A stretch of DNA of 64,000 nucleotides. It comes from Metaphire vulgaris. Taxonomy: Eukaryota; Annelida; Clitellata; Crassiclitellata; Megascolecidae. The stretch's first letter is position 1. The number at the start of each line of letters is the position of its first letter. Shown here piece by piece: positions 36,501 through 41,844 of this stretch. Under the pieces are notes generated by a model. It ran no database searches. It had not been told where the DNA came from and worked only from the letters and a program-made list of their open reading frames with translations. A program made the translations under genes and the position numbers. The stretch lies in contig CM030835.1 in NCBI GenBank assembly GCA_018105865.1, positions 5,651,816 to 5,715,815 on the forward strand. Direction: 5' to 3'.

Positions 36501-39500
36501 GTGCCTTTAGGGCCTTCTGAGCTTTTCACCATGATGAGAATTTAGGAATAAATCTTTGGGATGGGGGTTTGTGGAGGTATGTGCCCTGCGTGCCTCTTTA
36601 GACCCGCTTCTGTTCGTGAATTATTGGTTTACAAAAGATTTGACATATGTCCAGCCTGTATGGAAATTAGGCCTACATATTGGCAGGGGTTTGCTCATCT
36701 TATGATGTTTTGCAGATTTCAAGGCGCCGGTCTGTACAATGAGACAACATATTTCGTGCGTTACCGAAAAATCAGGTGAAGTTTTCTCATAATTATTATT
36801 TATTAATCTCTAAGCAGTCTAAGGATAAGCACGTAACACATATTCAAAGTTAACTGAGCAACAGTGTAGGCTTAGTTAGTCCATCCCACGCTCACTGGTA
36901 AGGGATTAATTTGAGCTTATAAATGCCATTCGCGAAAAAAACTACAACGCTTTTCAGACACAATCCAGTCAGACTGTTGATTTCGAAATTAAGTTCTAAA
37001 GATTTCTATCGCGATGTATTTAAATTTTATTTTCTTGCAATTGCGATCAGGGGCGTAGCAACGGGTGGTATATCGGTATATATATAACCCCTCCCAAAAA
37101 TCAGTCTACCTTAACGTTTTAATGTATTTTTAAGATTTTAAAAGATTTTAAAAAAGATGTACAATTGTACATGCATACCCACAAATCACATTATACCACC
37201 ACCACCACCCCCAAATTAAATCCCTGGCTACGCCCCTGATTGCGACATAGTATTTTCTGTTTTCTCCGCTAGATGCTAAACAATCTGGAAACTTGTTATG
37301 CTTGTTAGAGCTTGATATAAATCGTATGCTCCCATATCCACTCTTCAAATTAATTAATTTCATGGAGTTGGATGTTCATTTACAGTCTGTCTTGCTGTTT
37401 CTCACTTGACTGATCTCTGGAATGGCCTGATTATTTGTGAATTGATTTCGAGTACCATCGACTGATTACCATGTGCATTCGAACTATTGTTACAGAGGGA
37501 CATTATTATTATTATTATTATTATTATTATTATTATTATTATTATTATTATTATTATTATTATTATTATTATTATTATTATTATTACAACTATTGCTACT
37601 GCTACTACTACTACTACTACTACTACTACTACTACTACTACTACTACTACTACTACTACTACTACTACTGTTACTACTACTAATAATAATAGGCTTAGTG
37701 GTGGCGGTGGAGTGGTAGAGTGGTTGTGGCAACAACAGTATTAGTAGTAGCAGCAACTGTTATTATTATTATTATTAGTGGTAGTGGTGGTGGTAGCGGT
37801 GGTAGTGGTGGTGGTGGTGGCGGTGGTGGTGGTGGTGGTGGTGGCGGTGGTGGTGGTGGTGGTGGTGGTGGTGGTGGTGGTGGTGGTGGCAGTGGTGGTG
37901 GTGGTGGTGGTGGTGGTGGTGGTGGTGGTGGTGGTGGTGGTGGTGGTGGTGGTGGCAGCAGCAGTGGCAGTGGTGGTGGTGGTGGTGGTGGTGGTGGTGG
38001 TGGTGGTGGTGGTGGTGCAGCAGTAGCAGTGGTGGTAGCAGCAGCAGCAGCAGTAGTAGCAGTAGTAGTAGCAGTAGTAGTAGTAGCAGCAGTAGTAGCA
38101 GCAGCAGTAGTAGTAGTAGTAGTAGTAGTAGTAGTAGTAGTAGTAGTAGTAGTAGTAGTAGATACTTTGGGGGCTGGTTTCAAATGCTTTGTCATGTTGC
38201 AGGCGACTTTTCCCGGATAACGGATACCAATTGTTCGTGCGGCTTTCCTTGTTCCTTCTCCGAATACCATATCGGTTATTCGTTCAGCGATCTCTTTCAG
38301 AGACAGCACCGGATCATCCATTCGACGTCCGTTCCGCCTCTGGCCATCCTTCTGCCGGAGGCGAAACTTAGCGAGATGAGAGACGATCGCTGTCGAGCTG
38401 CCAACGTCCGCGCCCGACACACTCGCGAGATCTGGATCGAAGACACCGAGCAGGTGATCGAACTCGATCGATCGCTCGACGACCTGGCCTATCAGATCGA
38501 GGTCCTCCAGGTCAACCTGCGTCACGTCGGGCAACAGCTTCACGCATACTTCGGGGCCGTCCAGCTACGCGTCGCCTTTCACCTGAACGTCGCTCTCGCC
38601 GGCATGCGACGGGCGTTCAGCGACGGTTTCGTCGGACCCTTCCTCGCGGTCCGCGACCGTCTCCTGATGCCGCTCGTGTCGCAGTCCTACGAAACGACGG
38701 CGCACGTCGAGCGCAGCGTAAAGCAGCTGGTGTTCACGTCGACGTCCGAGTTGGTCTTGCGTAAAGTCGTCTACTACATGTCGGACAACGAACTGTCCGG
38801 AAAACTCGAGCTCGCCATACAGACGCTCGATAACCTGACGAAGATGTACTACGCGTTTCTGAACGCCGAGCCGATGGCGGCGCTGGACTTGACGCCGGAG
38901 AGACGCTACGACGCCCATCTCGTCCCGTACGACGTGCTGTCCGAGGCGAACGAACGGGTGAAAGCTCACTACACCGCCATCTCCGAGAACGTCGCCGGGC
39001 TGATCGAGCACATCCTGTCGCTGAAGGGACTCATCAAGGACGTCTCGCAGAGGAACAGCCTCAACGAGACGCTATTCGGCGGCCTGCGCGACGCCTTCCT
39101 CCATCGAACGGCGCAGGTCAAGCGCTTCTCGGAACGGTTCGAGACGGACGTGATCGGACGGTCCCTGGAGCTGATCGACGCGAAGACCGCTGCGCTGAGG
39201 CGTACGAACGAAACGACCGCCGCGGCCATCGTCAATCTAACTCGACGCTTTCAGGCGCTGCAGGGCCTCGTAGACGCCGCCTACTCGGAACCCTACAGCG
39301 CCATTCTCCGGTTCTCGCAGGAGGCTCAGAGATACACGCGAGAACCTAACGCCCTCAAGTCGACTCTTGCGACTCTCGTCTTAAAGGAATCGACCGAACG
39401 GTTCGTCAGAACCGTAGTCGGGTACGTCGACGACATTCAGAGTCATGCGACGGAGGTCAGGACAGGCTGGACGACCGTCGAGGACTCGCTGAAGAGCCTG

Positions 39501-41844: not shown

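What the first reader, a model, noticed from the sequence alone, without database searches (positions are those of the whole stretch)
38290..39910. DEG/ENaC channel with a giant, helix-rich insertion in the extracellular knuckle/palm
The Cys-rich segment ending CSCGFPC...EYHIGY and the pre-TM2 strand ENVVSVDIQIS are about 30 residues apart in ASIC1; here about 540 residues separate them. The reading frame is unbroken over 1.7 kb, its codon use and CpG content match the other channel exons, and all ten exons join in frame. The insertion replaces the loop that holds the knuckle helices, so three copies would sit on top of or beside the trimer. It could sense force, bind matrix or bind ligand. 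I know no DEG/ENaC subfamily built this way.
Basis: partly seen in the sequence, partly recalled or inferred. Interest (0 to 1): 0.9.

Follow-up and report, generated by a model that had tools for sequence, protein, structure and literature searches.

The report
Earthworm sodium channel with giant insertion
An earthworm gene is predicted to encode an ion channel of the acid-sensing and epithelial sodium channel family that carries an extra, mostly helical stretch of about 500 amino acids in its outer part, kept in four gene copies; what it senses or binds is not known.

Summary
Confirmed. Ten GT-AG exons join in frame to a 1,101-residue DEG/ENaC subunit (Pfam ASC 5.7e-41). In exon 8, 544 residues separate EYHIGY from ENVVSVD; CxCxxxC to filter is 586 residues, against 90-93 in 8 of 8 siblings measured. 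The genome is Metaphire vulgaris (two scaffold lengths identical). Three other chromosomes carry the same exon at 72, 40 and 40% identity, with further channel exons around it. Four database proteins are relatives. dN/dS is 0.21-0.43; insertion and channel are about equally conserved. Exon 8 is 1,708 nt, so skipping it breaks the frame. The insertion has no hydrophobic span, helical periodicity, three sequons kept in 8 of 8 rows and a cysteine near each end. No Pfam, NCBIfam or PDB sequence family matched. A weak model (pLDDT 47) shows helices, no strands. Best reading: an ASIC-like DEG/ENaC subfamily with a glycosylated helical crown at the knuckle, perhaps a tether or partner-binding module. 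Transcription, trimer geometry and gating are untested.

The parts
18210..18547 (+). exon 1: N-terminus (start codon uncertain), HG motif (FHGIRRI)
   Evidence: first in-frame ATG 18210; match on C13 at 76%
23971..24141 (+). exon 2: TM1 and first part of the ectodomain
28870..29028 (+). exon 3: finger region (by order, recalled ASIC1 layout)
30977..31065 (+). exon 4: cysteines of the finger region
34205..34410 (+). exon 5: palm/beta-ball region
34937..35081 (+). exon 6: thumb region, Cys-rich
36716..36775 (+). exon 7: thumb region (VCTMRQHISC)
38203..39910 (+). exon 8: last canonical cysteines (CSCGFPC) plus the insertion; 1,708 nt, not a multiple of 3
38280..39910 (+). the 544-residue helical insertion at the knuckle position (residues 416-959, last codon completed by exon 9)
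38391..38393 (+). Cys453, invariant in 6 of 6 rows that cover it
39885..39887 (+). Cys951, invariant in 8 of 8 rows; proposed partner of Cys453
   Evidence: the disulphide is inferred
38832..38840 (+). N-glycosylation sequon N600, in 8 of 8 rows
39063..39071 (+). N-glycosylation sequon N677, in 8 of 8 rows
39207..39215 (+). N-glycosylation sequon N725, in 8 of 8 rows
40791..40882 (+). exon 9: pre-TM2 strand (ENVVSVDIQIS)
   Evidence: found in C13; not found in C2 and C34
41507..41844 (+). exon 10: TM2 with GAS motif, cytosolic tail, stop
41830..41841 (+). C-terminal ETKI, PDZ-ligand-like (ETKI or ETDI at the end of the four copies; in C34 after a frame change)
   Evidence: PDZ reading recalled

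Best explanation
The gene encodes a pore-forming DEG/ENaC subunit of ASIC-like type in the earthworm Metaphire vulgaris. It belongs to a subfamily of at least four members in which the knuckle has been replaced by a soluble, probably glycosylated, all-helical domain of roughly 500 residues, probably closed at its base by a cysteine pair. Most likely the channel works like other DEG/ENaC channels (trimer, Na+ pore, ectodomain movement opening the gate), and the helical crown is the input: it holds an outside partner (matrix, neighbouring cell or soluble ligand) and passes pulling or binding to the knuckle-finger-thumb path. Within this I favour a tether or adhesion role over a soluble ligand. 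Shown: gene structure, DEG/ENaC chassis, position, conservation, selection, helical periodicity, sequons, cysteines. Inferred: extracellular location (from topology), glycosylation, disulphide, trimer, crown as input, tether role.
For: Chassis: Pfam ASC 5.7e-41 in two stretches, the best at 88-424; hydrophobic windows only at TM1 and TM2, none in the insertion; 14 ectodomain cysteines before the insertion, the number and order of the recalled ASIC1 set; HG and GAS motifs (recalled). Nearest solved structures are ASIC2, ASIC5, ASIC1, while sibling L001 is nearest FaNaC. Insertion: the exon recurs at 72, 40, 40% on C13, C2, C34. A chassis search lists 26 exon matches (30 candidates scored); the 21 with E<0.01 all lie in the four insertion-bearing loci. 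dN/dS 0.21-0.43. Identity of insertion against chassis 72.5/68.2, 42.3/47.2, 42.5/43.5%. Helical periodicity at 100 degrees 261 against 134 +/- 19, maximum 190 of 500 shuffles. Helices and no strands in the model. Three sequons in 8 of 8 rows. Tether: knuckle N511 of alpha-ENaC matters for the shear-force response and N-glycans are proposed tethers (PMC7958617, passages).
Against: No transcript seen: the four database relatives cover exon 8 only and stop or run into unrelated residues at its end, and no full-length protein was found. No functional data. Exon 9 was not located in C2 and C34, exon 4 not in C2, exon 3 not in C34, and exon 10 of C34 changes frame, so those copies may be damaged, divergent or misassembled. 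Model confidence is low (pLDDT 47.3, pTM 0.37, 361 of 568 residues under 50). Nothing measured separates tether from ligand binding or assembly. Animal proteomes could not be searched.
Confidence: 0.5

Rival explanations
1. The crown is a ligand-binding domain: a soluble molecule (peptide, lipid or other) binds the helical bundle and gates the channel.
Confidence: 0.25
2. The domain is an assembly or trafficking module (helical contact between subunits, glycan-dependent export) with no part in sensing the stimulus.
For: Very long helices in the weak model (exon residues 52-177, 288-359, 395-458); three sequons in 8 of 8 rows; four paralogs could mix in one trimer (inference).
Against: Eight siblings measured lack it, and known DEG/ENaC channels assemble without it (recalled).
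Confidence: 0.2
3. Exon 8 is a gene-model error: the insertion is not in the main transcript, being an alternative or read-through exon.
For: No transcript evidence; the four database relatives look genomic. The splice-site test is weak: 3 of 9 of the gene's own donors score under the cut-off of 3, and the C13 copy holds a perfect-consensus donor-like site (8.4) at codon 305 of its exon 8.
Against: Skipping exon 8 shifts the frame and drops CSCGFPC. In the window exon one internal site scores above 3 and no site is shared by the four copies. The exon is under purifying selection.
Confidence: 0.05

Closest known systems
Acid-sensing ion channels ASIC1, ASIC2, ASIC5/BASIC
   Same: Two TM segments, HG motif, GAS motif, 14 ectodomain cysteines (motifs recalled); best PDB matches 5.1e-13 to 6.5e-8
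   Different: Knuckle replaced by a 544-residue helical insertion with two further cysteines; proton gating not tested
FMRFamide-gated channels (FaNaC), the type of sibling L001 in this genome
   Same: Same superfamily and genome
   Different: L001 matches FaNaC at 6.6e-59 and has 91 residues from CxCxxxC to filter; the window chassis shows no FaNaC chain at E<=0.1
Trichoplax TadNaC channels
   Different: Predicted there to be loops; here a conserved helical domain of about 500 residues
alpha-ENaC knuckle glycan tether
   Same: Glycosylated knuckle linked to shear-force response (PMC7958617, passages)
   Different: Vertebrate epithelial channel with an ordinary-sized knuckle (recalled)

Membership tests
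DEG/ENaC superfamily (Pfam ASC) | significant ASC profile match | tested here: met
   5.7e-41, score 141.4 against a cut-off of 23.6 bits, two stretches
DEG/ENaC superfamily (Pfam ASC) | two TM segments flanking one large ectodomain | tested here: met
   hydropathy windows over 1.6 only within 110-138 and 982-1021
DEG/ENaC superfamily (Pfam ASC) | HG motif before TM1 and G-x-S filter in TM2 | tested here: met
   FHGIRRI and LFLGASVLS in the joined protein; motifs recalled
DEG/ENaC superfamily (Pfam ASC) | conserved ectodomain cysteine set | tested here: met
   14 cysteines from 164 to 406, matched by number and order to the recalled ASIC1 set
DEG/ENaC superfamily (Pfam ASC) | trimeric Na+ channel activity | not testable with these tools
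   needs expression and recording
ASIC subfamily | closest sequence relation to ASIC | tested here: inconclusive
   the 15 best PDB matches are ASICs, but no tree with other animals was made
ASIC subfamily | proton gating | not testable with these tools
   no recording
ASIC subfamily | short two-helix knuckle | tested here: not met
   544 residues at that site; siblings about 49
FaNaC peptide-gated family | closest sequence relation to FaNaC | tested here: inconclusive
   no FaNaC chain at E<=0.1; PDB only
Known helical domain family for the insertion | Pfam, NCBIfam or PDB sequence match | tested here: inconclusive
   nothing over a curated cut-off; best PDB profile hit E 0.025, falling to 0.31 with more rows

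The most novel reading that the evidence does not exclude
A clade of worm DEG/ENaC channels has a built-in extracellular tether: a glycosylated helical crown on each subunit of the trimer that grips matrix or a neighbouring cell and opens the pore when pulled, so that sensor, tether and pore are one protein rather than a complex as in nematode touch receptors.
Probability: 0.25. Interest if true: 0.85.

Novelty: new variant of a known kind. Interest (0 to 1): 0.62.

Why it matters
DEG/ENaC ectodomains are usually described as one fixed fold (recalled). A subfamily that has kept a further 500-residue domain in four paralogs, at a site already linked to shear-force sensing in ENaC (PMC7958617), gives a natural test of how the ectodomain passes force or binding to the gate: the crown can be removed, swapped or pulled on.

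Tried and rejected
Protein database search of residues 395-1040 in the full-length context found nothing at E<=0.01 among 8,000 scored candidates; only proteins of about 606-1,928 residues were candidates, so the exon-sized relatives found later (435-575 residues) were out of range, but a full-length protein was not found either. Viral contigs: none. Pfam, NCBIfam and PDB sequence searches of the insertion gave weak, scattered hits, mostly helical or coiled-coil families. Internal repeats: best 11.7 against null 8.3 +/- 2.8, maximum 17.5 of 100, rejected. Single-sequence fold: pLDDT 37.7, set aside. Structure matches: helical bundles of many kinds; TTYH2 and chemoreceptor domains appear but do not stand out from designed bundles, so no family is claimed; Foldseek 'pdb' was asked once and not answered. 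Six other ASC loci with long open frames or odd spans (C17, C16, C28 twice, C36, C22): two run into N stretches, the others look like split or ordinary channels by eye; no second crown seen. tRNA (ARAGORN, bacterial code) and Rfam gathering search: none in the window. COX1 to name the animal: one short fragment just over the cut-off, not used. Paper searches: I saw listings (two returned none; 20 of 28, 15 of 117, 10 of 18 and 10 of 13 papers were listed in 55, 79, 109, 130), and no title or abstract start announced such a channel; passages of PMC10507113, PMC6827283, PMC9822975, PMC9949801 describe none. Open-access papers only. The donor matrix and the hydropathy and helix scales used in scripts were recalled.

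Full report
What is there. The window lies on contig 4 of a 728-Mb genome. Contig 1 is 50,191,389 bp and contig 17 is 16,345,198 bp, which are the longest scaffold and the scaffold N50 printed for the earthworm Metaphire vulgaris in PMC7666815 (section read). Its lineage is Annelida, Clitellata, Megascolecidae. Ten exons with GT-AG introns join in one frame to 1,101 residues. Pfam ASC matches at 5.7e-41 in two stretches, the best at 88-424, ending just inside the insertion, which starts at 416. Hydropathy windows pass 1.6 only within 110-138 and 982-1021, fitting TM1 and TM2. The start codon and the Cys-rich N-terminus are uncertain.

How unusual. From the last CxCxxxC motif to the GG of the filter there are 586 residues, against 90-93 in 8 of 8 siblings measured, the eight loci that delivered. 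One search lists 98 ASC matches, a lower bound (93 of 1,519 candidates scored); 33 cover the full profile without stops and span 466-603 residues. These are intronless genes; intron-bearing ones, the window gene among them, were not measured that way. The excess is about 495 residues.

Is it coding and conserved? A search of the own genome with exon 8 gives four matches: itself, C13 at 72%, C2 at 40% and C34 at 40%, the last three covering residues 1-568, 8-568 and 6-568 of 568. Around them lie other exons of the channel: eight in C13, five in C2, six in C34, some of the short ones with weak scores. Pairwise dN/dS over exon 8 is 0.21 to 0.41, and 0.21 to 0.43 from column 27 on; dS exceeds 1 in five of six pairs, so these ratios are rough. 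Identity of insertion and chassis to the window copy: C13 72.5 and 68.2%, C2 42.3 and 47.2%, C34 42.5 and 43.5%. A chassis search of the genome lists 26 exon matches from 30 scored candidates; the 21 with E below 0.01 all lie in these four loci, so I saw no close paralog without the insertion, within the limits of an exon-by-exon search. By dN the pairs are (C4, C13) and (C2, C34), which would fit the whole-genome duplication reported for this worm (PMC7666815, section read) on top of an older duplication; this is inference. Against: exon 9 was not found in C2 and C34, and exon 10 of C34 changes frame.

Relatives elsewhere. A profile of the four exons found P0001 and P0002 (63-64% identity), and a profile of exons 8-10 of two copies found these again plus P0003 and P0004 (40%), among 8,000 and 7,999 scored candidates. 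Hosts are not named. All four stop or run into unrelated residues at the end of exon 8, so they look genomic and give no splice evidence; their DNA was not seen.

Can the insertion be skipped? Exon 8 is 1,708 nt, so leaving it out shifts the frame and also removes CSCGFPC. In the window exon one internal donor-like site scores above 3, and no site is shared by the four copies; but 3 of the gene's 9 own donors score under 3, and the C13 exon holds a donor-like site of 8.4 at codon 305, so this test is weak.

What it most likely does. The chassis is ASIC-like (best PDB matches ASIC2 5.1e-13 and ASIC5 5.1e-9) and should form a cation channel. The insertion sits where ASIC1 has its knuckle helices (recalled). 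In alpha-ENaC a knuckle asparagine, N511, matters for the shear-force response, and N-glycans are proposed as tethers to the matrix (PMC7958617, passages). In Trichoplax channels this site carries insertions predicted to be loops (PMC6827283, passages). I therefore read the domain as an extracellular input crown, more likely tether or adhesion than soluble ligand, with about even odds that this reading is right. An ETKI/ETDI end in the four copies suggests anchoring to PDZ proteins (recalled motif); in C34 it lies after the frame change.

Novelty. My paper searches gave no listing that announced such a subfamily, in open-access papers only; animal proteomes could not be searched. It is a DEG/ENaC channel by each feature I could test, with one part outside the range seen here: a new variant of a known kind.

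Noticed in passing
G000 C1, C12, C15, C23, C41: Large DEG/ENaC expansion: 98 ASC matches listed (a lower bound), 33 of them full-profile without stops, with several matches close together on these contigs; L001 (C10) is FaNaC-like.
   Followed up: partly
window 41830-41841 and the ends of the C13, C2 and C34 copies: C-terminal ETKI/ETDI, PDZ-ligand-like, in the four copies (C34 after a frame change).
   Followed up: partly
window 18366-18437: Cys-rich low-complexity stretch in the predicted N-terminus, possibly lipid-modified or not translated.
   Followed up: no
L010, end of the C13 exon 8: The C13 copy appears to use a GC donor (CAG|GCGAGT) after exon 8.
   Followed up: no
window 33042-33087, 33870-34203, 37504-38160: Very long simple repeats just before exons 5 and 8 and nearby (CT, CTT, ATT, GGT, AGT units).
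   Followed up: no
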